Assembly (NCBI GenBank): GCA_019136935.1
Contig: JAGVTI010000194.1
Location: forward strand, 1-10,788
Direction of reading: 5' to 3'
From: Deltaproteobacteria bacterium
GTDB lineage: Bacteria; Desulfobacterota; Syntrophia; Syntrophales; JAAYKM01
DNA: 10,788 nt
Shown piece by piece: positions 1-10,788 of the stretch (positions within the stretch are counted from its first letter, which is position 1; each line of letters opens with the position of its first letter). A model generated the notes under the pieces. That model had not been told where the DNA came from. It worked only from the letters and a program-made list of their open reading frames with translations, and ran no database searches. Made by a program: the position numbers and the translations under genes.

Positions 1-1
1 G

Positions 2-55
2 GTTTCTGCGCCCGCTTTACAGGACGGCAGGAATAAAATGAGAAGATTTTTATGA
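2..55 (+). CDS. possible 3' end of an upstream gene (partial)
   Basis: The second reading frame is open from the left edge to a TGA at 53-55, giving 17 visible codons. This stop overlaps the ATG of the radical SAM gene in an ATGA arrangement (52-55), the same junction type seen between other genes here. That suggests an upstream gene translationally coupled to the operon. Seventeen residues are too few to assign a family, and an open run of this length can occur by chance. An internal ATG at 38 would encode only five residues and is unlikely to be a gene by itself. Confidence 0.4.
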   Translation, partial: VSAPALQDGRNKMRRFL

Positions 56-1050
56 AAACGGTCAGTTCTTTACTGGATGAATCCTGGCACGAGCGTTACC
101 GGAAAATCGCCAGCCTGAATATCCGCAGCTCCATCTACGATGTAACGAACCGCTGCAACCTGCGCTGCAAGGGGTGCTTCTTCTTTTCCTCCAACGAGCA
201 CGAAGCCGCTCTCGAGGAGATGGAGCTCGCCAAATGGTACGATTTCGTCGGCCGGGAAAAGGAAAGGGGGGTCAACCTGGCCATCCTGATCGGCGGCGAG
301 CCAACCCTGTACCTCGACCGGATCGAGGCCTTTCATCGCCTTCTGCCCACCTACTGTGCCACCAACGGGCAGATCAAGATCCCCCGGGACCGCTTTCCCG
401 ACATGATGGTGGGCATTTCCCTGTGGGGGGACGAGGAGGACGAAAGGATCCTCCGGGGGAAAGATACGTTCGCCGTTTCCCGGCGCCATTACGAGGGTGA
501 TCCCTATACCTACTACCTTTACACGATTACGGCAAAGCAGGTGGGACGACTCGAATCGGTGGTCCGTAAAATCGCCGACGCGGGTCTCAAGGTTCATTTC
601 CAGCTCCTGACGAACGATGAAGACGTGGACGGATTCTCCTGGAGCGGGGAAAAACTGCGGGATGTCCGGAGCGAAATGGACGAGATGCTCGACCGCTATC
701 CCCGGACGGTTATTTCGTGCCGGTACTATCACGAGGTCATCACCACGGGTAAAATGATGGGGCGGTCCTTCGGCTGGAACGAGTGTCCCTCCGTGACGGA
801 ACCGCTGGACACACGGAACCCGCGCCCCAAAAGGCTCATCCGTTTCATCCGCTGGGCTTCCGATCTGAAGACCATGCACCGGTGCTGCACGTCCGAAACC
901 CGCGATTGTTCGACCTGCAAGGACGGAGCGGCCCACATGAGCTGGATCATGGTGAACAAGCGGGATCATCTGCGTTCGACGGAAGACCTCCAGAACTGGA
1001 TCGAAGTCTACGAAATGTTCGCCAAGCTGTACCGGTTCATTCCCTGGTAA
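52..1050 (+). CDS. radical SAM enzyme of unknown specificity
   Basis: A 332-residue radical SAM protein. The [4Fe-4S]/S-adenosylmethionine signature CxxxCxxC is complete at C35, C39 and C42, and a GGEP motif that contacts the SAM methionyl group lies at residues 81-84. A second cysteine group near the C-terminus (C245, C278, C279, C286, C289) could bind an auxiliary iron-sulfur cluster, SPASM-like in spirit although not the canonical spacing. There is no cobalamin-binding domain. The ATG at 52 overlaps a preceding stop, and an in-frame stop at 34-36 rules out a longer start in this window. The gene sits 9 bases before the first ketosynthase, so it is probably co-transcribed with lipid-assembly genes. 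Its substrate cannot be read from sequence: it could modify an acyl chain, a head group or a peptide. The superfamily call is firm; the reaction is unknown. Confidence 0.88.
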   Translation: MKTVSSLLDESWHERYRKIASLNIRSSIYDVTNRCNLRCKGCFFFSSNEHEAALEEMELAKWYDFVGREKERGVNLAILIGGEPTLYLDRIEAFHRLLPTYCATNGQIKIPRDRFPDMMVGISLWGDEEDERILRGKDTFAVSRRHYEGDPYTYYLYTITAKQVGRLESVVRKIADAGLKVHFQLLTNDEDVDGFSWSGEKLRDVRSEMDEMLDRYPRTVISCRYYHEVITTGKMMGRSFGWNECPSVTEPLDTRNPRPKRLIRFIRWASDLKTMHRCCTSETRDCSTCKDGAAHMSWIMVNKRDHLRSTEDLQNWIEVYEMFAKLYRFIPW

Positions 1051-1059
1051 CCCCTGTTC

Positions 1060-2334
1060 ATGAGTGCTGCGGCAAGGATGGGGACAGAGAGGAAAAGGCC
1101 GGTGATACTCGGCTACGACGCCATATCGCCCCTGGGGCTGGATATGCCGGACCAGTGGGAGCGCGCAGCATCGGGTGCCAGCGGGATCGGCCCCCTGACC
1201 CGTTTTCCTCTCCGGGACGGATTTCCCGTCCGGATCGCCGGAGAAGTGGAGGAGATCGATACGGGGATCTACCCTTTTCTCGCCGCCCGGGACATGGTGC
1301 AGTGGACGTCGCCCCTGTTCAGGTACGCCATGCTGGTCGTTCACCGGGCGCTGTTGAAAAGCGGAATTGAAATCACCCCGGCCCTGTCACCCCGGGTGGC
1401 CGTTACCTTCAGTTCCGCCATCGGCGGCCTCGACGCCGTCCTGCGGGCGGACAGGCTTCTCGTATCCGGTGGAAAGCTCCCCCACCCTTTCACCAACCCG
1501 AATTCCTGTATCAACATGGTGGGCGGGAAGGTATCGATCATGACGGGAGCGACGGGACCGATTACGGCAACGATCACCGCCTGCGCCACGGGAAGCACCT
1601 CCGTGATCATGGGGGCGCTTCTGATCGAGCAGGGCATGGCCGACGTCGCCGTTTGCGGCGCCGTTGATTTTCCCCTCGTCGAACCCATCGTGGGAGGATT
1701 CGCCACGATGAACGGGGCCTACCGGCCGAAAGAGGACCAGCCGGAGGAAGCGCCGGAGGCGGCAAGCCGCCCTTTTTCTCGAAACCGGCGCGGCTTTGTG
1801 GTCTCCGAAGGGGCCGGCTGCGTGATCATCGCCGGGCGTAACTTCGCCGCGGCTCACGGCCTGAAGTCCTCCCTGGAAATAGCGGGCTGGGCCATGACCT
1901 CCGACGCCCATCACTTCGTGGCGCCGAATCTCGAAACGGTCCGGCGCTGCGTCTCCGGCAGTCTCGCCGACGCGGGGCTGCGGGCGCCGGAGATTGACGC
2001 GGTCAACGCCCACGGCACATCGACCAGAATCGGCGACAAGGTCGAATGGGAGGCCCTGCGGGATGTTTTTGGTGACCGCATTCCCCCCGTATCGGCCAAC
2101 AAGTCCCAGACGGGTCACGCCATGGGGGCTTCCTCCGCCATCGAGCTGATCCTGGCCATGGAAGGGATGATGCGGGAAAGGGTTCTGCCGACGATCAATT
2201 ACCGGCCGGACCCGGAACTCCCCCTCGACTGTGTCTCCGAAGGAACGAGGAAGCTGGAGCAGGAATACGTCCTGAAAAACGCGTTCGGATTCGGCGGCTG
2301 CAACGCCTGCCTGGTGTTGCACCGGACAGCTTGA
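1060..2334 (+). CDS. beta-ketoacyl-ACP synthase, FabF-like (first of a tandem pair)
   Basis: A thiolase-fold condensing enzyme of 424 residues, the usual FabF length plus a short N-terminal extension. The catalytic set is complete: nucleophile C175 in a TACATGS context, H318 in NAHGTST, K348 in NKSQTGH and H353. It should therefore catalyse decarboxylative Claisen condensation of malonyl-ACP with an acyl-enzyme, and it is not an inactive chain-length factor. The glycine-rich loop near the C-terminus reads GFGGCN where GFGGTN is typical, placing a cysteine beside the active site. Residues 281-285 (SDAHH) are shared with the next gene, consistent with tandem duplication. The start is uncertain: the ATG at 1060 has no clear ribosome site, the ATG at 1078 aligns better with the N-terminus of the second ketosynthase, and a GTG at 1102 is preceded by an AGAGGA-type site but would clip the first strand. 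Confidence 0.93.
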   Translation: MSAAARMGTERKRPVILGYDAISPLGLDMPDQWERAASGASGIGPLTRFPLRDGFPVRIAGEVEEIDTGIYPFLAARDMVQWTSPLFRYAMLVVHRALLKSGIEITPALSPRVAVTFSSAIGGLDAVLRADRLLVSGGKLPHPFTNPNSCINMVGGKVSIMTGATGPITATITACATGSTSVIMGALLIEQGMADVAVCGAVDFPLVEPIVGGFATMNGAYRPKEDQPEEAPEAASRPFSRNRRGFVVSEGAGCVIIAGRNFAAAHGLKSSLEIAGWAMTSDAHHFVAPNLETVRRCVSGSLADAGLRAPEIDAVNAHGTSTRIGDKVEWEALRDVFGDRIPPVSANKSQTGHAMGASSAIELILAMEGMMRERVLPTINYRPDPELPLDCVSEGTRKLEQEYVLKNAFGFGGCNACLVLHRTA

Positions 2335-2368
2335 ACCATCACCGGGAAAGGGATCATTCAATCGGACC

Positions 2369-3637
2369 ATGAAGGCACCCAAGAACAGACGGGTTTTCGT
2401 TATCGGCTACGGCGCGGCCACGCCCCTGGGAAGGACTTTTTCCACGACCTGGGAGCGTGCGGTGAAAGCGGAGGCCGGTTTCCGCACGGTTACCCGCTGC
2501 CATGTCAAAACCCTGAGCCACGTCGTGGGTGAAATACCGGATTGGGATCCGCTGCACCTGGGCCTGGCCGATGAAAAGGAAGTCTATAACTGGAATGCGG
2601 CCTTTGTCATTCTGACGATGGCGGTCTGCCGGGAAGCGCTGGAACATGCGGGATTGATCATGGACAACGGCGTCGCCCCGAAAACCGCCTGCCTGATCGG
2701 CTCCGCCATCAACGGCACCGACGCCTTCCGGTACGCCGTGGAAAAGCTGCGGGACCAGGGCCCCCTCAAGGTCAGCCCCTACCTCCTCCCCAATATCTGC
2801 GCCAACCTGCCCGCCGGGAAAGCCGGAATGGAACTGGGCTTTACGGGCCCTATCTTTTCACCCCAGGGCGCGTGCGCTTCCGCGAATTACGCCCTGGCCC
2901 TGGGCGCCCGGATGATCCGCGACGGCGACTGCGATTTTGCCTTGGCCGGAGGAGTCGATATGCCGATCATCCCGGAGATCCTCCACGGTTTCGCCAATAT
3001 GAACGCGACCATCAAGATCCATCCCTACGACCGGGCCCATGGCGACCCGTCCCAGGCCTCCCGGCCTTTCAGCGTGGACCGGAAGGGTTTTGTCGTGGCC
3101 GAAGGAGCGGGGATCCTGGTTTTGGCCGCCGAAGAGACGCTGAAAGCCCACGGACTGCAGGCCAGAGCCGAAATCATGGGAGTCGGATGGAGTTCCGACG
3201 CCCACCATTTCACTCGTCCGAACAAGGATACGGTGATCCGGGCCATCGGGAACGCGATCGACGACGCGGATCTTTCGGCGGAGGATATCTCTTATATCAA
3301 TGCCCACGGGACCTCCACCATGGCCGGGGACAGCACGGAAATCGATTGCCTCCGGGCCGTTTTCGGCGATCGCCTGGCCGATATACCGATTTCATCCAAC
3401 AAATCCCAGATCGGCCATTCCCTGGGCGCCGCCGCGGCGGTTGAAGACGCCCTGACGATCGAGGGGATGCAGCGGGGCGTGATCCTGCCGACGATCAATT
3501 ACCTGGCGGACCCCGCATTCAACGGCCTGGATTTTGTTCCGGGCGAAGCCCGCCGGCAGCACCATGAAATCGCCTTATCGAACGCCTTCGGCTTCGGCGG
3601 AACCAACTGCTGCATCGTTTTCCGGGGGTGTCAATGA
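2369..3637 (+). CDS. beta-ketoacyl-ACP synthase, FabF-like (second of a tandem pair)
   Basis: A 422-residue FabF-type condensing enzyme, similar along its length to the preceding gene. The active site is complete: C169 (GACASAN), H313 (NAHGTST), K345 and H350 (NKSQIGH). The C-terminal loop has the standard GFGGTN form, so this is the more canonical of the pair. It starts at ATG 2369, 34 bases after the first ketosynthase, and its stop overlaps the thioesterase start (ATGA at 3634-3637). Adjacent ketosynthase genes occur in type II PKS and aryl-polyene clusters, where one partner is often a cysteine-less chain-length factor. Here both keep the nucleophile, so they may be two active enzymes with different chain-length or unsaturation preference, or an active heterodimer. 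Family assignment is secure; the division of labour is inference. Confidence 0.94.
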   Translation: MKAPKNRRVFVIGYGAATPLGRTFSTTWERAVKAEAGFRTVTRCHVKTLSHVVGEIPDWDPLHLGLADEKEVYNWNAAFVILTMAVCREALEHAGLIMDNGVAPKTACLIGSAINGTDAFRYAVEKLRDQGPLKVSPYLLPNICANLPAGKAGMELGFTGPIFSPQGACASANYALALGARMIRDGDCDFALAGGVDMPIIPEILHGFANMNATIKIHPYDRAHGDPSQASRPFSVDRKGFVVAEGAGILVLAAEETLKAHGLQARAEIMGVGWSSDAHHFTRPNKDTVIRAIGNAIDDADLSAEDISYINAHGTSTMAGDSTEIDCLRAVFGDRLADIPISSNKSQIGHSLGAAAAVEDALTIEGMQRGVILPTINYLADPAFNGLDFVPGEARRQHHEIALSNAFGFGGTNCCIVFRGCQ

Positions 3638-4113
3638 AACCGAAGCCGTTCAAACCTCAGCCGCTGCACGACCATTCCCGTTACGTCCGGGAGCCGGAAA
3701 CGGGCCTGGTCTGGCACCGCTGCTTTCAACGGACCCTTTACGCGGACACGGACCGCTCCGACGTGGTCTACCACGCCAATTACCTGCGCTACTTCGAGTT
3801 CGGCCGGGCCTCCCTCATGAGGGACGCATCCTATCCCTACCGGGAAATCGAAGAGAGCGGCTATGTTTATCCCATTATCGAACTGGGAATCACTTTCAGC
3901 AAACCCCTGCGTTACGACGATCCCATGTTCGTCTACACCCGCCCGGCGGAAATCGAACGGGTGAAACTGCGATTCGACTACACGATCACCCACGCCGAGT
4001 CGGGGGCGATCATCTGCCGGGGATTCACAAGGCACTGCGCGTTAAACGCCCGGCGAAGACCCGTGGCGATCGATCCGAAAACAGTACACCTCTGGAAGAC
4101 GTTTCCGGAGTAG
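3634..4113 (+). CDS. hotdog-fold acyl thioesterase (YbgC/4-hydroxybenzoyl-CoA thioesterase type)
   Basis: A 159-residue protein with the 4HBT/YbgC signature around residues 36-57: a TD pair carrying the presumed catalytic Asp40, then VVYHANYL and a FEFGR segment. The glycine that usually follows in this motif is replaced by aspartate (RSDVVYH). Family members hydrolyse acyl-CoA or acyl-ACP thioesters in the cytoplasm. Here the protein probably releases or edits intermediates from the cluster ACP encoded just downstream. I chose the ATG at 3634 because it overlaps the preceding ketosynthase stop in an ATGA junction and follows a run of five G. A GTG at 3628 would add only two residues. The enzyme class is well supported; the actual acyl substrate is inferred from neighbours. 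Confidence 0.88.
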   Translation: MKPKPFKPQPLHDHSRYVREPETGLVWHRCFQRTLYADTDRSDVVYHANYLRYFEFGRASLMRDASYPYREIEESGYVYPIIELGITFSKPLRYDDPMFVYTRPAEIERVKLRFDYTITHAESGAIICRGFTRHCALNARRRPVAIDPKTVHLWKTFPE

Positions 4114-4169
4114 ATTGAAACCAGGAATGCTGGGATTTGATTAAGAGATACGGGGGCATTGGAACCGAC

Positions 4170-4433
4170 ATGACACGTGACGAAATTACAGCGCATATCC
4201 TTCAGATCTTCCGAAAGGAATTCGAAATTGAAAATCCGGGATTGGACGACGATCTGCGGGAAGAACACGAATTCGACAGTATCGATGCCGTGGAACTGCT
4301 CCTTCAGATCGAAAAGATGCTGGGTTCGGAACTGACCCAGGAAGAGAAAAAGCAGGCCATGGATATCCGGACCATCAACCAGGTCTGTGACTACATCGAG
4401 GGCCTCGCACGGATAAGGCAGAATGTTTCATGA
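4170..4433 (+). CDS. acyl carrier protein
   Basis: A small acidic protein of 87 residues with the phosphopantetheine attachment motif DSID at residues 36-39; Ser37 would carry the prosthetic arm. The motif is followed by a helix-II-like segment (AVELLLQIEK), and the predicted four-helix length suits type II ACPs. It presumably holds growing chains for the ketosynthases and dehydratase around it. The phosphopantetheinyl transferase domain encoded at 6643-8175 is a natural candidate to activate it. I chose the ATG at 4170, which has a GGA about six bases upstream. An in-frame TTG at 4137 would add eleven poorly conserved-looking residues. Dialkylresorcinol and aryl-polyene loci also carry dedicated ACPs of this general type. 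Confidence 0.93.
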   Translation: MTRDEITAHILQIFRKEFEIENPGLDDDLREEHEFDSIDAVELLLQIEKMLGSELTQEEKKQAMDIRTINQVCDYIEGLARIRQNVS

Positions 4434-4490
4434 CAAAAGACGGCGTGGTGACTTTTCCGCTTCCCAACCGTACCGCAACCGGGTTCACGT

Positions 4491-4529
4491 TCACGGTCAT
4501 TCTGACTGAAGCGAAGAATCCAAGCGTGA
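4491..4529. repeat. dispersed-repeat-like hairpin in the gap between the ACP and third ketosynthase genes
   Basis: The gap at 4434-4624 holds no convincing gene but contains a core (CATTCTGACTGAAGCGAAG, from 4498) very close to a short element I recall as widely scattered in bacterial genomes. Its accidental translations read VILSEAK on one strand and ILRFAQND on the other; here they read VILTEAKN and ILRFSQND. Two nested inverted repeats are visible: outer TCACG (4491-4495) with CGTGA (4525-4529), and inner ATTCT (4499-4503) with AGAAT (4515-4519). The element could form a hairpin in the operon transcript. Its identity rests on remembered similarity and would need a copy search in the host genome. 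Confidence 0.6.
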
Positions 4530-4624
4530 CGGCACAGGGTATATTGATGGAAGCAAGCACGACACGACAACATAGCCTCTTTGGCGAGGAAGCCGGTTCT
4601 GCCGGTTAGAACAGCGGAAGTCAA

Positions 4625-5866
4625 ATGAACAGAAGAGTGGTTATCACGGCATGCTCGGCCATCACCCCCATCGGACGGACCCGGGCGGAGATGCTTCACT
4701 GCCTGACAAACGGCGTCTCGGGGGTCAAACCGCTGAAAGAGGACGGTCTCCTGTCTTCTTTCATTCATTCGAAGGTCTTCGGCACCGTCGATTATCCGGT
4801 CACCTACGACTTCAAGCGTTCGTTCCGCAAAACGATGGGGCCCGTGGCCTATTACGCCTGCCAGGTAGCGAAGGAAACTCTCGAAAGCTCGGGTATCGGC
4901 CAGGACTTGATCACCTCCGGCCGCCTGGGCGTCGCCTTCGGTTCGACCCACGGCAGCCCCACGGTACAGCGCGAGATATACAAGACCTTTTTCGGCGGCA
5001 CCCAGAGCGACGTGAGATCCATCGGCGCCGTCGATTACCTGAAATCCATGGTCCATACCACGGCGGTCAACATCACGAAGATGTTCGGCATCACGGGGCG
5101 GGTCATTTCGTCCTCCACGGCCTGCACGACGAGCAGCCAGTCCATCGGCTTCGGCTACGAGATGATCAAGTTCGGCATGCAGGACGCCATGCTCTGCGGC
5201 GGCGCCGACGAATACGACACGACGACCGTCGCCGTTTTCGATAACCTCCTCGCCTGCTCCACGGCTTTCAACGACACGCCGGATCAGACCCCACGCCCGT
5301 TCGATGCAAAGCGGGACGGCCTGGTGGTGGGAGAAGGCGCCGGGGCGGTACTCCTGGAAGAATACGAACACGCGAGAAAACGGGGGGCCACGATACTGGG
5401 TGAGGTCATCGGTTTTTCCTGCAACAACAACGGCGGTGACCTGATTCTGCCGAATCTTCAGGGCATTACCGAAACGATCCGGATCGGCCTGCGGGACGCG
5501 GGCATATCCGCAGGCGAGGTTGATTTCATCAGCGCCCATGCCACGGGCACCAAAATGGGAGACGTCATCGAAGCCCAGGCGATCCACAATGTCTACGGCG
5601 ATCATCCGCCCGTAGTCGGTTTGAAGAGTTACATGGGACACACCATGGGGTCCTGCGGGGTCATCGAAACGATCATCCTGCTCCACCTGATGCGGGAAGG
5701 CTATATCGTACCGACCCTCAACCTGTCGAAGATCGACGAACGCTGCGCCATGATTCGTCACAGCCGCGAGGTGAAGGATTATCCGATCCGGACCGCCGCG
5801 GTCCAGAATTTCGCCTTTGGCGGCGTAAACACGAACCTGTTTATCAGGAAAATCAGCCAGGGGTAA
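4625..5866 (+). CDS. beta-ketoacyl-ACP synthase, divergent FabB/FabF-like (third ketosynthase)
   Basis: A 413-residue condensing enzyme with a complete catalytic set: C167 in a STACTTS context, H305 in SAHATGT, K334 and H339 in KSYMGHTMG. It is clearly more distant from the tandem pair than they are from each other. The SDAHH loop is replaced by CNNNGGD (residues 266-272), the His motif is SAHATGT where the pair has NAHGTST, and the C-terminal loop reads AFGGVN where GFGGTN is typical. This is nearer to FabB and to ketosynthases of aryl-polyene clusters, so it may do a distinct step such as priming or extension of unsaturated chains. The ATG is preceded by GGAAG at a good distance, so the gene has its own ribosome site after the repeat-containing gap. 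Confidence 0.92.
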   Translation: MNRRVVITACSAITPIGRTRAEMLHCLTNGVSGVKPLKEDGLLSSFIHSKVFGTVDYPVTYDFKRSFRKTMGPVAYYACQVAKETLESSGIGQDLITSGRLGVAFGSTHGSPTVQREIYKTFFGGTQSDVRSIGAVDYLKSMVHTTAVNITKMFGITGRVISSSTACTTSSQSIGFGYEMIKFGMQDAMLCGGADEYDTTTVAVFDNLLACSTAFNDTPDQTPRPFDAKRDGLVVGEGAGAVLLEEYEHARKRGATILGEVIGFSCNNNGGDLILPNLQGITETIRIGLRDAGISAGEVDFISAHATGTKMGDVIEAQAIHNVYGDHPPVVGLKSYMGHTMGSCGVIETIILLHLMREGYIVPTLNLSKIDERCAMIRHSREVKDYPIRTAAVQNFAFGGVNTNLFIRKISQG

Positions 5867-5884
5867 CCGATCCGGTGGTGTAAA

Positions 5885-6646
5885 ATGGTGAACGTCTTGA
5901 AAAGATTGGCGGATTTTGCCATTACGGCAATCCTGTGGACATACTATATCGGCGGTTTCATTCTCGTCTTTTCTTCATTGTATTTTGTCTCTTTTTTTTT
6001 CAGGGACAAAAGGGACGTCGCCTACCAGCAGTTAAATAACCTTTTTTTCAGAAGTTTCTTCGCCCTGCTCCGAACCGTCGTACCCAGAGTGACCTGGCAG
6101 GTATCCGACGAGGTCCGCGCCATCCGGTCATCCGTCATCATCGCGAACCATCTTTCCTTTCTTGATCCGATCCTGTTCGTTTCCCTGTTCGCCAGGCAAA
6201 AGACCGTCGTGAAAAAAGATTATTTCCGCGTTCCCGTTTTCGGCTGGATTCTCGAAACATCCGGCTATATCCCCGCTTTTACGGAAGATTCCGGGGCGGA
6301 GATTCTCCTTGAGCAGGTAGGGAAGATGAAAACCTACCTGGCGGAAGGAGGAAATCTCTTCATGTTCCCCGAAGGGACCCGCAGCCGCGACGGACGGATC
6401 GGCGCCTTCGACCGGGGGGCCTTCCGGATCGCGAAGTTCTGCGATGCCCCCATCCGGGTCGTCGTCATCCGCAACACCGGCCGGCTTTATCCCCCGGGGC
6501 GCTTTCTCTTCAATACCCGGGAGCGTTTCACCATTTCCGTCGAGTCGGCGGGCACCTTGACGCCCGATTACGCAGATGAAACTTTTTCCCTCTCCGCCCT
6601 GATGGCGAAGGCACGAACGCGGATGGAAGGGAGGGACAACCCGTGA
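5885..6646 (+). CDS. PlsC-type acyltransferase (lysophospholipid acyltransferase family)
   Basis: A 253-residue protein of the 1-acyl-glycerol-3-phosphate acyltransferase (LPLAT) family. The catalytic NHxxxxD motif is at residues 88-94 (H89, D94), and the phosphate-binding FPEGTR motif is at 161-166. A hydrophobic stretch at about residues 10-38 is a likely membrane anchor, placing the active site at the cytoplasmic membrane surface. Members move an acyl group from acyl-ACP or acyl-CoA to a lysolipid or other alcohol. It begins 18 bases after the third ketosynthase and ends in a GTGA overlap with the next gene. A PlsY homologue lies nearby, so a role in placing the cluster's acyl product on a glycerol backbone is plausible. 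Acylation of a resorcinol or other non-glycerol alcohol is the main alternative. Confidence 0.9.
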   Translation: MVNVLKRLADFAITAILWTYYIGGFILVFSSLYFVSFFFRDKRDVAYQQLNNLFFRSFFALLRTVVPRVTWQVSDEVRAIRSSVIIANHLSFLDPILFVSLFARQKTVVKKDYFRVPVFGWILETSGYIPAFTEDSGAEILLEQVGKMKTYLAEGGNLFMFPEGTRSRDGRIGAFDRGAFRIAKFCDAPIRVVVIRNTGRLYPPGRFLFNTRERFTISVESAGTLTPDYADETFSLSALMAKARTRMEGRDNP

Positions 6647-8175
6647 TACAGACGCCCCCCCGTTCGGAACAGGACAGGGACGACGCATGGGTCCGGCTTC
6701 CCCGGATCCTTCCCGTTTCGTCCTACCTCTGGGACCATCATTTCATGGGGAAAACGATTTTCCCCGCCGTCGAGATTCTCCAGGGGCTCGCCGCCACCGT
6801 GCTGGCGCACAGGCCGGAGGCAAGGGTGACGGGCATGCGGAACGTTTCCTTCGACCGGTTCCTGGAAATCGCTGAAAACGACCGCGAGCGCATCGTCTTC
6901 CACGACCTCAAGGCAAACGGAAAGGGCCTCGTCTCCGCCCGCCTGGTGACCGTTTCCCCGTCCGGGAAAGCAGGCATCAGGCGGGAAAAGATCCACGCCA
7001 TGGTCGATTTCACGGCGCCGGAGTGGACCGGCAGGGCATTTCCGATGGACCTGGCGGCTGCACTGGAGGGAATGGTCTACCGGCTTCCCGCGGAACAGCT
7101 CTACAGGAAACTCATTCCCTTCGGCCCTGCCTACCGGAACCTCCAGGGCGAGGTGCTTCTGACCGAAAACGGCGGGGTGGCGCAGGTCCGGGCTGCGGAA
7201 TACCCGGCTCCCGCGGCACCCCTGGGTTCGACCTTCCCCTTCGACGGAATCATGCACATCGCCTGCGCCTGGAGCCAGCGCTTTCACGGGATCGTCGCCT
7301 TTCCCGTGGGCTTCGGCGAGCGGGCCGTCCCCATTCCGACGGTTCCGGGCGAGACCTATTTCTGCCGGGTTTTACCCGTTTCGGCCATGAAGGAAGAGTT
7401 GATCTTCGACATGGCGATTTACGATCCGGAAGGAAGGGTGCGGGAATTCATCGGGGGCATGAAGATGAGGGACGTTTCGGGAGGGCGTGTCAGACCGCCC
7501 GGATGGGTCCGGTTCGACGGCACCGATCCCCTGGCCACAATCAGGAAGCACTGCGAAGCGCTCTGCGTCATCGAGGAGGCGGCGGTCGCCGGTTTTGCCG
7601 CCGATGCCCTGACGGCCGGCGAGAGAACGCGTTTCGACCGGATGGGAATCCGAAGAAAAAAAAATTACCTGATGGGCCGCCTGGCCCTCAAAATCCTGGC
7701 GCGAAAACTGGCCGGGCAGGATCGCAAGTTCCCCGCATCGGCGATCCACACGATGATGGAGGACGGCGTAAGGCCGTTCTGTCCCGATTTAGCCGGCCGG
7801 GGATCCGTTTTCTGTTCGCTCTCCCATGACCGGCGCTTCGCCGTGGCCGTCGGCGGAGGGGAACCGATGGGGATCGACGTGGAATTCCTTTCCGGGCGGG
7901 TCCTGAGGGCGAGGCACCTCTACATGGGAGAAACGGAGTCGACCCTGGCCGACCGGTCCCCCCTGGGCGTCCCGGCCGCCGCGCTGCGGGTCTGGTCCAT
8001 CAAGGAAGGAGTGACGAAGGCCCTCGACATGCCCATCGGGGAAGCCTGGCAACGCGTGAGGGTCCGGAATATCGGGGAATACGAAAGCCGCCTGACCGTG
8101 GACGGCGAGCACTTTGCGGCATTCCACGATACGGTGGACGATCATGTCTTCACCCTGGTAAAGCGGGAATCATGA
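6643..8175 (+). CDS. fusion of a PKS-type dehydratase domain and a 4'-phosphopantetheinyl transferase
   Basis: A 510-residue two-domain protein. Residues 1 to about 275 look like a double-hotdog polyketide dehydratase. They contain HxxxGxxxxP (H32, G36, P41) and a DxxxH motif at D201-H205 matching the second catalytic site. Residues about 300-510 match an Sfp-type phosphopantetheinyl transferase: SLSHD at 392-396, the magnesium-binding GIDVE at 410-414, and WSIKEGVTK at 451-459. The first domain would dehydrate 3-hydroxyacyl-ACP to the 2-enoyl form, and the second would attach the phosphopantetheine arm to the ACP. The same domain order ends enediyne PKS proteins, where DH is followed by a PPTase-like domain; here the two stand alone. 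The GTG start overlaps the previous stop (GTGA, 6643-6646) and has a GGGAGG site upstream. A run of nine A at 7656-7664 lies early in the PPTase part. Confidence 0.88.
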   Translation: MIQTPPRSEQDRDDAWVRLPRILPVSSYLWDHHFMGKTIFPAVEILQGLAATVLAHRPEARVTGMRNVSFDRFLEIAENDRERIVFHDLKANGKGLVSARLVTVSPSGKAGIRREKIHAMVDFTAPEWTGRAFPMDLAAALEGMVYRLPAEQLYRKLIPFGPAYRNLQGEVLLTENGGVAQVRAAEYPAPAAPLGSTFPFDGIMHIACAWSQRFHGIVAFPVGFGERAVPIPTVPGETYFCRVLPVSAMKEELIFDMAIYDPEGRVREFIGGMKMRDVSGGRVRPPGWVRFDGTDPLATIRKHCEALCVIEEAAVAGFAADALTAGERTRFDRMGIRRKKNYLMGRLALKILARKLAGQDRKFPASAIHTMMEDGVRPFCPDLAGRGSVFCSLSHDRRFAVAVGGGEPMGIDVEFLSGRVLRARHLYMGETESTLADRSPLGVPAAALRVWSIKEGVTKALDMPIGEAWQRVRVRNIGEYESRLTVDGEHFAAFHDTVDDHVFTLVKRES

Positions 8176-8209
8176 CATCCGTATTGCAATCAAGGGAGGA
8201 AACGCGGGA

Positions 8210-8791
8210 ATGATCCCCTTCGTCATCATCTCGGCCGGGGCCTATCTGGCGGGATCCGTAAACTTTGCCATTATCCTGTTTGCCGTTCTGGGAAAAGGGG
8301 ACCCCAGGTCCGGCTTCAGCGGTAACGCCGGGGCGACGAACGTCCGGCGCCAAGCGGGGCTCGGTTGGGCCGCTCTGGTCCTTCTGCTCGATTTGATCCG
8401 GGCGGCGGCACTGTCCTTCGCCGCCCTGTATTTTCTGCCGAAAGGGATGGCACCCTGGGTGGCCCTGGCGCTGGTGCTGGGCAACCGCTTTCCCTGCTTC
8501 CACGGTTTCCAGGGGGGGAAAGGGGTGGCGGCATACCTCGGTTTTACCATCCCCCTTGCGCCCTATGCGGCGGCACTGTCCGCCCTCGCCTGGGTTGCCG
8601 TTTACGGGATCGGCCGTATTCCCTTCATCGCCTCTTTCGGCATGGTAGCCGTTCTGGCGGCGGGCACGGTCATCGCCTCCGGGTACGACGCGGCCGCAGC
8701 GACGGGTGCCGTGGCGACGGCCTCTTTCATCTACCTCAATCACCGCCAAAACGTGTCGGACCTCCTGCACGGGAAACCGGAAACCTCCTGA
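8210..8791 (+). CDS. plsY: PlsY-like acyl-phosphate:glycerol-3-phosphate acyltransferase, divergent
   Basis: A 193-residue, very hydrophobic protein with several membrane spans. Motif 1 (SGNAGATNVR, residues 37-46) and motif 2 (GGKGVA, 102-107) are clear. The third motif region (HRQN at 178-181, then LLHGKPE) is recognisable but lacks the usual RL pair and has the terminal glutamate shifted. The usual histidine before the proline in motif 2 is asparagine (GNRFP). PlsY transfers an acyl group from acyl-phosphate to glycerol-3-phosphate, the first step of phospholipid synthesis in most bacteria. Its place at the end of a specialised operon suggests a dedicated copy for unusual acyl chains, although a displaced housekeeping gene is possible. 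No PlsX is visible. The ATG is preceded by GGAGG about ten bases upstream. Confidence 0.9.
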   Translation: MIPFVIISAGAYLAGSVNFAIILFAVLGKGDPRSGFSGNAGATNVRRQAGLGWAALVLLLDLIRAAALSFAALYFLPKGMAPWVALALVLGNRFPCFHGFQGGKGVAAYLGFTIPLAPYAAALSALAWVAVYGIGRIPFIASFGMVAVLAAGTVIASGYDAAAATGAVATASFIYLNHRQNVSDLLHGKPETS

Positions 8792-8852
8792 ATGCTTCCC
8801 TAGGGAACCGAAATCGCCCTGTGATGATCGGCCCGCAGTGAAGGGGGAGAAC

Positions 8853-8884
8853 CGTGTAAAGGAAAACCAGGATTCCTTTACACG
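8853..8884 (+). terminator. 12-bp perfect inverted repeat, possible terminator or operator
   Basis: CGTGTAAAGGAA (8853-8864) is exactly complementary to TTCCTTTACACG (8873-8884), with an 8-base loop. It lies about 60 bases after the PlsY stop and about 75 bases before the -35 box of the next promoter. A run of five T starts at 8892, seven bases past the stem, later than in a classical intrinsic terminator, and the stem is not very GC-rich. It may end the first operon's transcript. A perfect dyad of this size between operon and promoter could equally be a binding site for a dimeric regulator. Confidence 0.5.
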
Positions 8885-8960
8885 AAAGTAGTTTTTGACG
8901 GCAAAAATTCCTTTTTTCGTTGATCGATATTCGAAGCCTGAAGGCAAGGTCGGATATTTT

Positions 8961-8989
8961 TTGACATAAGGGATCGTGCTTGCTATATA
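8961..8989 (+). promoter_or_regulatory. sigma70-type promoter for the darAB-like unit
   Basis: A consensus -35 box TTGACA (8961-8966) is followed after 17 bases by TATATA (8984-8989), with a TG extended -10 element at 8981-8982. Reading the -10 as TATATT (8986-8991) gives a 19-base spacer and a better box. The stretch is AT-rich in an otherwise GC-rich window. Transcription would begin near 8996, leaving an untranslated leader of about 58 bases before the ATG at 9054. This argues for a separate transcription unit and against the GTG at 8976 as a start, since it lies inside the promoter. Confidence 0.72.
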
Positions 8990-9009
8990 TTCCCGGCTCA
9001 AAGCGGCAG

Positions 9010-9023
9010 GCCGGCATCCCGGC
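9010..9023 (+). promoter_or_regulatory. small GC hairpin in the 5' leader of the darA-like gene
   Basis: GCCGG (9010-9014) pairs with CCGGC (9019-9023) around a 4-base loop. It lies between the predicted transcription start and a strong ribosome-site-like GAGGAGG at 9032-9038. That site is 15 bases from the ATG at 9054, longer than usual, so the leader may fold or initiation may be inefficient. It is a weak feature that could be chance in GC-rich sequence. Confidence 0.3.
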
Positions 9024-9053
9024 AGGATTTTGAGGAGGCGTTCTTTTCCCTTT

Positions 9054-9929
9054 ATGAAGAAAATAATGGTCATCTATTACAGCCAGACGGGACAGCTCAA
9101 GCAGGTCGTGGATTCTCTGCTTTCGCCCCTTGCCGCCGATTCCAGGTTTTCCATCGATTACATGGAACTCCGGCCGGCGGTGGCCTACCCTTTTCCCTGG
9201 ACCCGGGACGCTTTTCTGGATGTTTTTCCCGAATCCGTTCTGGAGATGCCGATCGATTTGAAACCGTTCGAGGCCGACTATTCCGGTCCGTACGATTTGA
9301 TCGTTCTGGCCTTCCAGCCCTGGTACCTGTCCCCGTCTCTGCCCATCTCGGCGTTTCTGAAAAGCCCGGACGCGGCCGGGCTCCTGAGAGGAAGCCGGGT
9401 GGTGACCGTTATCGGAGCGCGCAACATGTGGGTTAAGTCCCTTGAACGCGTCGAGCGGGGCGTGGAATCCCTCGGGGGAACCCTCGCCGGCAACATCACC
9501 TTGACCGACCGGGCCCTCAACCTGGTCAGCGCCGTAACGATCGGCTACTGGATGTTCCACGGGAAAAAGGACCGCTACCTGGGTGTTTTCCCGAAGCCCG
9601 GGATATCCGATGCCGACATCGACGGCGCCGCCCGCTTCGGAAGGGTCCTGGCGGACGCCCTGATCTCCGGCCGGACGGACCGGATCGGCGAAGAACTGGA
9701 CAAACTCGGTGCAGCGGAGATAAATGATTCGTTGGCGAGACTGGAGAATCGTGCTAAGAAGATTTTCGAAATATGGGCGAAGTTGATCACAAAGCGTCCC
9801 CGGATCAGGCGTTTGTTGCTGAACCTGTTTTTTGTCGAGCTGATTTTGGGCCTTGTCATCCTATCCCCTTTAAATTCTCTTCTTGGTATTGCATTAAAAT
9901 CATTCAGAAAAAAGGCGACACGGACATAG
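9054..9929 (+). CDS. darA: DarA-like dialkylresorcinol biosynthesis protein (flavodoxin fold)
   Basis: A 291-residue protein that I recognise as the DarA family of dialkylresorcinol and flexirubin loci. The N-terminus (VIYYSQTGQ, residues 6-14) is a flavodoxin-like phosphate-binding loop. Other family-typical segments are PFPWTRDAF (46-54), AFQPWYLSPS (86-95), VIGARNMWV (119-127) and a C-terminal hydrophobic stretch at about 254-283, likely membrane-associated. DarA homologues act after the ketosynthase DarB, aromatising the cyclohexanedione to a resorcinol; a flavin-dependent oxidation fits the fold. I chose the ATG at 9054 because the longer GTG start at 8976 falls inside the promoter and would add a basic, non-conserved-looking extension. 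The stop at 9927-9929 directly abuts the next ATG, so it is co-translated with the DarB-like gene. Confidence 0.87.
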   Translation: MKKIMVIYYSQTGQLKQVVDSLLSPLAADSRFSIDYMELRPAVAYPFPWTRDAFLDVFPESVLEMPIDLKPFEADYSGPYDLIVLAFQPWYLSPSLPISAFLKSPDAAGLLRGSRVVTVIGARNMWVKSLERVERGVESLGGTLAGNITLTDRALNLVSAVTIGYWMFHGKKDRYLGVFPKPGISDADIDGAARFGRVLADALISGRTDRIGEELDKLGAAEINDSLARLENRAKKIFEIWAKLITKRPRIRRLLLNLFFVELILGLVILSPLNSLLGIALKSFRKKATRT

Positions 9930-10788
9930 ATGGCGGATCAGGTCTATATTACGAAATTAGCGAAGTTTTTACCGAACGAACCGGTTTCCAATGACGGCAT
10001 GGAAAACATCCTGGGCAGGATCGACGGCCAGCCGTCTAAAATCCGTAACCTCGTTTTGAAAAGCAACGGCATCCGAACCCGTTATTATGCCATTGACGAT
10101 CAGGGCCGTTTCACCCATACCAACGCCGAGTTGACGGCCAACGCGATCCGTTCCCTGCTGGACTCGTCCATGAGAATCTCGGATGTGGAACTCCTGTGCT
10201 GCGGCACCTCCATTCCCGACCAGATTCTACCTTCCCACGCATCCATGGTGCAGGGCTGCCTCGACGCACCGCCGTTCGAAATCATTTCCACGGCAGGCGC
10301 CTGTTGTTCCGGCATCCACGCCCTCAAGTACGGCATGCTGTCGATTGCGGGCGGCAATTCCTTCAACGCCGTCTGCGCGGCATCCGAGCTGGTTTCGCCG
10401 CTGCTTCTGTCGCGCCATTACGAGAATGAACTGGCCGGCCTCCGCCGGTTGAAACGGCGGCCCATCATCGCCTTTGAAAAGGATTTTCTGCGCTGGATGC
10501 TTTCCGACGGCGCCGGGGCCGTTCTGTTGGAAAGCAGACCGAACCCGCCGGACAGCCTGTCTTTGCGGATCGATTCGATCGACACCTGTTCCTTTGCCGG
10601 GGAAGTCGCCACATGCATGTACGCCGGAAGCAGCCGGAACGGCGGAGGGAAACTGGTCAGCTGGAAGAACCATTCCCCCGAGGAATGGCTGGAAAATTCG
10701 ACCTTCGCCATCAAGCAAGATGTCAAGCTGCTGGATAAACACATCGTCAAGCTCGGCACGGAGAAGCTGGCCAAAACCCTGCGGAAAC
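9930..10788 (+). CDS. darB: DarB-like ketosynthase III, 3' end beyond the window
   Basis: An open frame from ATG 9930 runs off the window after 286 codons without a stop. The protein matches the DarB-type KAS III branch. The N-terminus contains LPNEPVSNDGM (residues 14-24) and a PSKIRN segment (35-40), then GIRTRYYA (47-54) and HTNAELTANAI (63-73), all familiar from flexirubin and dialkylresorcinol loci. The nucleophile is in TAGACCSG, most likely C126 by alignment with ACSG of FabH, with C125 beside it. SDGAGAVLLE (192-201) is the usual thiolase-fold segment. The catalytic His and Asn lie beyond the edge. DarB joins a beta-ketoacyl thioester to an unsaturated acyl thioester head to head, forming a cyclohexanedione. 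There is no gap after the DarA-like stop, and the ribosome site is weak, consistent with translational coupling. Confidence 0.88.
   Translation, partial: MADQVYITKLAKFLPNEPVSNDGMENILGRIDGQPSKIRNLVLKSNGIRTRYYAIDDQGRFTHTNAELTANAIRSLLDSSMRISDVELLCCGTSIPDQILPSHASMVQGCLDAPPFEIISTAGACCSGIHALKYGMLSIAGGNSFNAVCAASELVSPLLLSRHYENELAGLRRLKRRPIIAFEKDFLRWMLSDGAGAVLLESRPNPPDSLSLRIDSIDTCSFAGEVATCMYAGSSRNGGGKLVSWKNHSPEEWLENSTFAIKQDVKLLDKHIVKLGTEKLAKTLRK

What the first reader, a model, noticed from the sequence alone, without database searches (positions are those of the whole stretch)
52..10788. Aryl-polyene-like operon directly followed by a DarA/DarB resorcinol pair, a flexirubin-like layout with glycerolipid enzymes
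Three catalytically intact FabF/FabB-type ketosynthases, an ACP, a thioesterase and a DH domain sit beside DarA- and DarB-like genes. In Bacteroidetes, flexirubins combine an aryl polyene acid with a dialkylresorcinol. Here the same two halves come with PlsC, PlsY and a radical SAM enzyme, and with no glycosyltransferase, ammonia lyase or exporter in view. The product may be a new lipid class, for example a resorcinol- or polyene-bearing membrane lipid.
Basis: partly seen in the sequence, partly recalled or inferred. Interest (0 to 1): 0.75.

Follow-up and report, generated by a model that had tools for sequence, protein, structure and literature searches.

The report
Ladderane-type lipid cluster beside dialkylresorcinol genes
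An uncultured anaerobic bacterium carries a radical-enzyme-rich lipid gene cluster, of the kind suspected of making ladderane-like or polyunsaturated fatty chains, directly beside the start of a gene set for making resorcinol lipids, which suggests an oxygen-free counterpart of flexirubin pigments whose product is not yet known.

Summary
The window is a whole contig (C133) of a fragmented, probably Syntrophales, genome. Contig C87, its likely left neighbour, extends the operon with MMPL-like, LpxL-like, fused ketosynthase/CLF, phytoene-desaturase-like, TIGR04072 "rSAM_ladder_B12" (over cut-off), deacetylase, dehydratase, ACP and radical SAM genes. Eighteen of these 19 genes recur in the same order on one contig of a congener. 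The block fits the ladderane/polyunsaturated-hydrocarbon type of FASII cluster (Rattray 2009) better than an aryl polyene cluster, though it shares a core with the latter; no aryl-starter gene, glycosyltransferase or LolA was found in the 22.8 kb. DarA and DarB are confirmed; in relatives they open a module collinear with the Azoarcus dialkylresorcinol cluster. The two blocks are adjacent in 3 of 18 DarA loci inspected, in different arrangements; 11 exact contig-length matches point the same way, but a congener lacks the adjacency. A DarH-type acyltransferase tracks the block: the window's radical SAM gene is in 63 of 68 genomes with DarH and 15 of 87 without. Best reading: an anaerobic acyl pathway feeding glycerolipids and, through DarH, a dialkylresorcinol ester. 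All chemistry is inferred.

The parts
52..1050 (+). Radical SAM enzyme W1 (332 aa), second of a tandem pair; the first lies on contig C87
   Evidence: PF04055 35.9 bits; CxxxCxxC; orthologues (E<=1e-100) in 78 of 155 genomes of the order
1060..2334 (+). FabF-like ketosynthase W2 (424 aa), Cys-His-His present
   Evidence: PF00109/PF02801; motifs; own clade, sister to W3
2369..3637 (+). FabF-like ketosynthase W3 (422 aa), Cys-His-His present
3628..4113 (+). 4HBT / YbgC-type thioesterase (161 aa)
   Evidence: PF13279; TIGR00051 74.6 bits, cut-off 68.7
4167..4433 (+). Acyl carrier protein (88 aa)
   Evidence: PF00550 36.9 bits; DSI serine site
4625..5866 (+). Ketosynthase W6 (413 aa), aryl-polyene-KS-like, Cys-His-His present
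   Evidence: 40% identity to a CFT073 APE KS, 299 bits v 186 for FabF; groups with it at 100/99
5885..6646 (+). PlsC-type acyltransferase (253 aa)
   Evidence: PF01553 73.3 bits; NHLSFLD, PEGT
6643..8175 (+). Dehydratase - phosphopantetheinyl transferase fusion (510 aa)
   Evidence: PF01648 26.5 bits; HxxxGxxxxP, GIDVE, WSIKE motifs; homologues with PF14765
8210..8791 (+). PlsY-type glycerol-3-phosphate acyltransferase (193 aa)
   Evidence: PF02660 112 bits
9054..9929 (+). DarA-like flavodoxin-fold protein (likely dialkylresorcinol aromatase)
   Evidence: alignment suggests the start; two homologues named DarA; flavodoxin fold; next to DarB
9930..10788 (+). DarB, KASIII-type dialkylresorcinol cyclase, truncated by the contig end at 286 of about 380 aa
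   Evidence: NF053539 395.9 bits over 283 of 377 positions; active-site Cys aligned to FabH

Best explanation
The window is the 3' half of a roughly 22 kb, radical-SAM-rich type II fatty-acid/polyketide cluster of the ladderane/polyunsaturated-hydrocarbon type, followed directly by the first two genes of a canonical dialkylresorcinol (DAR) module. Proposed working: dedicated ACPs, primed by the DH-PPTase, carry a chain built by the KS/CLF and three further ketosynthases; dehydratases, the CrtI-like flavoenzyme and three radical SAM enzymes (one with a B12 domain) give a polyunsaturated, methylated or cyclised acyl chain without oxygen. PlsY and PlsC put the chain on glycerol phosphate. DarB and DarA make a dialkylresorcinol, and the DarH (BtrH-type) acyltransferase seen in relatives passes the acyl chain to it; the MMPL-like and ABC transporters move products to the envelope. 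Shown: gene content, catalytic motifs, conserved order, linkage in some genomes. Inferred: every chemical step, and that DarH uses this cluster's acyl-ACP.
For: C87 ends in 36 bases matching the window start with one mismatch and carries TIGR04072 rSAM_ladder_B12 at 379.9 bits (cut-off 360), CrtI-like, deacetylase, DH, ACP, rSAM, KS-CLF, LpxL and MMPL-MT genes. 18 of the 19 genes of C87 and C133 up to PlsY recur in order on G001:C149, 54-89% identical. Rattray 2009 describes the same unusual set (passages, first part of the Discussion). DAR: in G056, G002, G508 and, over two contigs, G001, the order darA-darB-D3-DarH-ABC-ABC-ACP-KS-CLF is collinear with Azoarcus darA-B-D-E-F-I-C-J-K. Linkage: G000, G057 and G235 directly; 11 shared contig lengths. 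DarH tracks the W1 rSAM gene: 63 of 68 genomes with DarH v 15 of 87 without. PlsY-D3-DarH are adjacent in G005, G024, G045 and G154, which have no DarA match.
Against: In G002 (same genus) DAR is flanked by pilin-like genes, not by the block, and in G056 and G020 PlsY is followed by NifU/NifS. DarA is strong in only 5 of 155 genomes of the order (a sixth, G020, is weak, 48 bits) against 78 with the W1 gene: DAR is an optional add-on. 15 of 18 DarA loci show no adjacent W-type genes, several because contigs end. DAR modules in G056, G002, G001 and G508 carry their own ACP, KS and CLF, so DAR may not need this block. DarA against TIGR04072 or DarH alone is not significant. No DarH was found in the window's own genome (72.7% complete). 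G056, G020 and G235 lack W5, W6 and PlsC at that place. No anammox protein was retrieved for direct comparison. No lipid data.
Confidence: 0.58

Rival explanations
1. Two independent neighbours: the ladderane-type block makes special acyl chains for glycerophospholipids only (its own PlsY and PlsC), while DarA/DarB make a free dialkylresorcinol (antioxidant, signal or other lipid). Proximity reflects a shared precursor pool or a preferred insertion site.
For: PlsY closes the block in G001, G002, G005, G020, G024, G045, G056, G057 and G154; 12 of the 13 DarA loci fetched elsewhere in the phylum show no W-type genes in the stretch held, and G002 has DAR away from the block; the 262-base gap before DarA may separate transcripts.
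Against: Different arrangements put DAR next to the block in three families, 11 contig-length matches, and a DarH-type acyltransferase accompanies the block even without DAR. No PlsY was seen beside the block in G235 or G142.
Confidence: 0.27
2. A true flexirubin-type pathway: an aryl polyene acid esterified to a DAR, with aryl-starter genes elsewhere in the genome.
For: W6 groups with an aryl polyene KS, the fused KS/CLF matches the other APE KS and the CLF, and TE, acyltransferase, MMPL and ApeI-like DH counterparts exist; arcuflavin clusters also hold a deacetylase, exporter and methyltransferase. In relatives a GT25-like gene flanks the MMPL gene of G057 and AMP-binding ligases lie near the cluster in G021 and G024.
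Against: No aryl starter, AMP-ligase, GT, LolA or ketoreductase in the 22.8 kb seen or within the 20-gene run of G001:C149; TIGR04072, the two rSAMs and CrtI have no counterpart in the CFT073 cluster.
Confidence: 0.13

Closest known systems
Ladderane / polyunsaturated-hydrocarbon type FASII clusters of Kuenenia stuttgartiensis and Desulfotalea psychrophila (Rattray 2009, PMC2649909)
   Same: Divergent FabF paralogues, ACPs, FabZ-type DH, several radical SAM enzymes including a B12 type (Kuste2803), phytoene-desaturase-like flavoenzyme, polysaccharide deacetylase, ACP synthase (PPTase), methyltransferase, putative lipid-transport membrane protein.
   Different: No FabG, phenylacetyl-CoA ligase, glycosyltransferase or VacJ-like gene seen; adds PlsC, PlsY and a fused KS/CLF; joined to DAR genes. 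In Kuenenia the genes lie in several loci; here they form one run.
DAR cluster darA-B-D-E-F-G-H-I-C-J-K of Azoarcus sp. BH72 (PMC3949708 Table 1)
   Same: darA, darB, ~145-aa darD, BtrH-like darE (called DarH in NCBIfam), ABC ATPase, ABC permease, ACP, KS and, at the place of the hypothetical darK, a CLF, in the same order in G056, G002, G508 and (over two contigs) G001.
   Different: In the window only darA and darB are visible; no darG/H toxin-antitoxin-like pair in the relatives; linked to a ladderane-type instead of a xanthomonadin-type block.
Aryl polyene cluster of E. coli CFT073
   Same: Homologous KS, KS/CLF, TE, acyltransferase, MMPL, ACPs, ApeI-like DH.
   Different: No GT2, LolA, DUF3261, acyl-CoA synthetase or FabG; has radical SAM, CrtI-like, PlsY and DH-PPTase genes.
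Flexirubin (Bacteroidota)
   Same: Polyene-type FAS genes adjacent to DAR genes, with a BtrH-type acyltransferase as a possible ester former (inferred).
   Different: No tyrosine ammonia-lyase or coumarate ligase in view; probably anaerobic host; radical SAM-rich.

Membership tests
Dialkylresorcinol (DAR) cluster | DarB-type KASIII (DAR cyclase) | tested here: met
   NF053539 395.9 bits over 283 of 377 positions (cut-off 550, not to be expected of a truncated protein); four full orthologues 533-559 bits, 2 of 4 over the cut-off; active-site Cys
Dialkylresorcinol (DAR) cluster | DarA adjacent to DarB | tested here: met
   Adjacent in the window, in the 4 other strong DarA genomes of the order and in 13 of 13 further loci of the phylum; 2 of 120 listed homologues named DarA; flavodoxin fold
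Dialkylresorcinol (DAR) cluster | darD, BtrH-type darE, ABC pair, ACP, KS, CLF downstream | tested here: inconclusive
   Contig ends inside darB; present in order in G056, G002, G508 and over two contigs in G001; no DarH match in G000
Dialkylresorcinol (DAR) cluster | makes a dialkylresorcinol | not testable with these tools
   needs expression and MS
Ladderane-type FASII cluster | TIGR04072 B12-radical SAM protein | tested here: met
   C87 protein 379.9 bits, cut-off 360; on the contig next to the window, not in it
Ladderane-type FASII cluster | several FabF paralogues, further radical SAM genes, phytoene-desaturase-like gene, DH, ACP, PPTase | tested here: met
Ladderane-type FASII cluster | FabG and phenylacetyl-CoA ligase in the cluster | tested here: not met
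   neither among the genes scanned on C87 and C133 nor within the 20-gene run on G001:C149; AMP-binding ligases lie near the cluster in G021 and G024
Ladderane-type FASII cluster | direct sequence relation to anammox proteins | not tested
   no anammox sequence was fetched; the named rows among the 120 listed carry only Deltaproteobacteria, Syntrophales/Syntrophaceae/Smithella and Spirochaetes names
Ladderane-type FASII cluster | makes ladderane lipids | not testable with these tools
   needs lipidomics; no ladderanes were detected in Desulfotalea (PMC2649909)
Aryl polyene cluster | APE-type KS and KS/CLF | tested here: met
   W6 with a CFT073 APE KS 100/99; N-terminal half of the fused KS/CLF with the other APE KS only 80/57 and long branches
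Aryl polyene cluster | aryl-starter enzyme / AMP-ligase, GT, LolA | tested here: not met
   none found on C87 or C133; the rest of the genome was not searched for them
Flexirubin cluster | aryl polyene half with ammonia lyase plus DAR half | tested here: not met
   no ammonia lyase among the genes of the 22.8 kb seen; DAR half present; rest of the genome not searched

The most novel reading that the evidence does not exclude
An 'anaerobic flexirubin': a radical-SAM-shaped (polyunsaturated, methylated or ladderane-like) acyl chain esterified by a DarH/BtrH acyltransferase to a dialkylresorcinol and exported to the envelope of Syntrophales. In relatives without DarAB the same kind of acyltransferase passes the chain to another acceptor, so the ladderane-type pathway would be a general acyl donor whose acceptor is swapped by exchanging a neighbouring module.
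Probability: 0.3. Interest if true: 0.78.

Novelty: new variant of a known kind. Interest (0 to 1): 0.52.

Why it matters
How ladderane-type clusters work, and what they make outside anammox bacteria, has been open since at least 2009 (PMC2649909); copies in other phyla, Desulfobacterota among them, were reported in 2023 as of unknown function (PMC9902471). The pairing with DarH-type acyltransferases, and sometimes with DAR genes, gives a concrete hypothesis about the fate of the product and a searchable lipid, a resorcinol ester. [quoted passage not shown]

Tried and rejected
Aryl polyene identity: tested against the CFT073 aryl polyene cluster; a shared core but no starter, GT or LolA, so not filed as a member. 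Anammox homologues: sought through the search for homologous proteins with the W1 rSAM alignment; the 120 listed of 1920 matches are all close relatives (706 bits or more), so the direct test was not made. The search for related loci in genome contigs with the DH-PPTase gave one locus with an 18-residue match, taken as spurious (Paenacidovorax). DarA by PDB sequence search gave only two flavoproteins at E 0.1-0.17; the fold search then showed a flavodoxin fold, with residues beyond 207 barely tested. Rfam: nothing over gathering scores. Promoter/terminator scan of 8600-9200: no more than chance. DarA co-occurrence with TIGR04072 or DarH alone is not significant (p 0.26 and 0.12); with the W1 gene 5 of 5 v 73 of 150 (p 0.03); relatedness is not corrected in any of these. 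Join of G001:C149 to C121 or C140 by end overlap: none found. Solved FabZ entries 7qv0 and 8ay* (recalled as anammox proteins; the call names no organism) matched the C87 dehydratase below ordinary FabZ entries, so they are not used as support. Contig-length matching used 80 of the 120 rows and 68 of the 120 rows; 11 exact matches, one near miss within 20 bases. Of the ten genomes fetched, six (G021, G008, G005, G154, G136, G024) were chosen because DarH and TIGR04072 lay on one contig, so they are no unbiased sample; G054's DarH locus (L102) shows no block gene.
Full report
What was checked. The window is the whole of contig C133 (10,788 b) of a genome of 1.79 Mb in 343 contigs, 72.7% complete. 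Two corrections: the 'DH' is a dehydratase-phosphopantetheinyl transferase fusion, and DarB is cut off by the contig end at 286 residues.

Beyond the left edge. The reverse complement of contig C87 ends in 36 bases that match window 1-36 with one mismatch. Its genes run the same way: an MMPL-like protein with a methyltransferase domain (open at the far contig end; transporter family matches below cut-off), LpxL-type acyltransferase, a 131-aa protein, a 725-aa fused ketosynthase/chain-length factor, CrtI-like FAD oxidoreductase, B12-radical SAM protein, polysaccharide deacetylase, FabA/ApeI-type dehydratase, ACP and a radical SAM protein. The B12-radical SAM protein is over the cut-off of TIGR04072, 'rSAM_ladder_B12' (379.9 v 360 bits). 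In the congener G001, 18 of the 19 genes of C87 and C133 up to PlsY lie in the same order on one contig, 54-89% identical; only the 131-aa gene is replaced, by a small gene and an ACP. This supports the C87-C133 join; the gap between the two tandem rSAM genes would be 51 bases here and is 60 in G001 (my arithmetic). So the 'missing exporter' was an edge effect.

What the first block is. Rattray 2009 (PMC2649909; outline and abstract; passages; first of two parts of the Discussion) describes FASII clusters in Kuenenia and Desulfotalea with many FabF paralogues, radical SAM enzymes, phytoene-desaturase-like enzymes, ACPs, FabZ and a membrane protein; Javidpour 2016 (PMC4790861; passages) lists an ACP synthase, radical SAM enzyme, FabF and non-canonical FabB as one cluster. 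The block here has that set. Against the aryl polyene cluster of E. coli CFT073, W6 is 40% identical to one KS and groups with it at 100/99; the fused KS/CLF resembles the other KS (80/57, long branches) and the CLF; TE, acyltransferase, MMPL, ApeI-like DH and ACPs have weaker counterparts; the radical SAM genes, CrtI-like gene, PlsY, DH-PPTase and deacetylase have none. W2 and W3 form their own sister pair. It is best called a ladderane-type block with an aryl-polyene-like core. The direct comparison with anammox proteins could not be made.

Are the two blocks linked? Directly in three of 18 DarA loci: G000 (DAR after PlsY), G057 (DAR between LpxL and PlsY, convergent with the block) and G235, outside the order (rSAM, KS, KS, TE, DH, a CoA-ligase-type protein, then DarH-D3-DarB-DarA on the other strand). 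In G001, G002 and G056 the two lie on different contigs; in G002 the DAR flanks are pilin-like genes, so DAR is not beside the block there, and in G056 and G020 PlsY is followed by NifU/NifS. The other 12 phylum loci show no W-type genes in the stretch held (5.4-20 kb); L128 has a CrtI-like gene (44%) and two radical SAM genes, L131 distant LpxL- and MMPL-like genes. Eleven of 68 DarA homologue rows share an exact longest-contig length, all over 10 kb, with a DH-PPTase row, including Syntrophus sp. SKADARSKE-3, where locus tags CSYNP_00413 and CSYNP_00419 are six apart; this is indirect. The block itself varies: G056, G020 and G235 lack W5, W6 and PlsC at that place.

A wider pattern. In 155 genomes of the order, DarA is strong in 5 and weak in a sixth, the W1 radical SAM gene is in 78, TIGR04072 in 86 at E<=1e-70 and 73 over the cut-off, DarH in 68 at E<=1e-10 and 64 over the cut-off. 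DarH and the W1 gene go together: 63 of 68 v 15 of 87 (p 1e-22, relatedness not corrected). By family label (f1-f21 as shown) 11 of 12 families with DarH have the W1 gene, of 13 that have it at all (p 0.002; families of unlisted genomes were not seen). TIGR04072 is also in 12 of 15 DarA genomes tested at E<=1e-60, 9 over the cut-off, but not on the DAR contig in those beyond the order. In G005, G024, G045 and G154, PlsY is followed at once by the D3-DarH pair (DarH 43-46% identical to that of G057) although DarA is absent. This suggests that a BtrH-type acyltransferase is a usual partner of the block, and that DarA/DarB add one particular acceptor.

Mechanism. From family knowledge (recalled, apart from the DAR-cyclase and DAR-aromatase labels of DarB and DarA): BtrH-type enzymes move acyl groups from carrier proteins; DarB condenses two acyl units to a cyclic diketone and DarA aromatises it; PlsY/PlsC acylate glycerol 3-phosphate. 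Hence the proposal: the block builds an oxygen-independent, unsaturated or radical-modified acyl chain; part goes to glycerolipids and part, where DAR is present, to a resorcinol ester. None of the chemistry is shown here.

Literature. Searches (lists capped at 12-20 rows; titles and starts of abstracts seen) showed no paper describing a ladderane-type cluster joined to DAR genes; the library lacks most subscription journals. PMC9902471 (passages) reports ladderane-type clusters in Desulfobacterota and other phyla, of unknown function. PMC3949708 reports DAR genes within or next to polyene clusters in nine genomes, so DAR-polyene adjacency itself is known. Verdict: a new variant of a known kind.

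Noticed in passing
G061:C24, G088:C32, G097:C112: Genomes of family f14 (probably Smithella-like) carry three tandem DarH/BtrH-type acyltransferases on one contig, with no DarA match in the genome.
   Followed up: no
window 6643-8175; L051, L052, L125: The DH-PPTase fusion is not universal: G056, G020 and G235 have a DH-only protein (278-301 aa) in the same place.
   Followed up: partly
L024:13788-15335, L097:17355-18905: An extra B12-radical SAM protein sits between PlsC and DH-PPTase in G057 and G154 (76% identical); the G057 copy is BchE/HpnR-like but below all cut-offs.
   Followed up: partly
L092, L100: AMP-binding ligase genes lie near the KS-CLF/TIGR04072/DarH cluster in G021 and G024; they could load a starter acid.
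   Followed up: no
L023 and L091 (G001 C121 and C140): DarH is split over two contig ends that share 23 exact bases, so these contigs are probably neighbours.
   Followed up: partly
genomes with DarB-like hits of 328-469 bits: 29 of 155 genomes of the order hold a DarB-like KASIII (E<=1e-80) without a strong DarA, perhaps a different StlD/DarB branch of unknown role.
   Followed up: no
L026:4504-5361 (G002): DarH of G002 shows one in-frame stop in the profile match, so it may be broken or misassembled.
   Followed up: no
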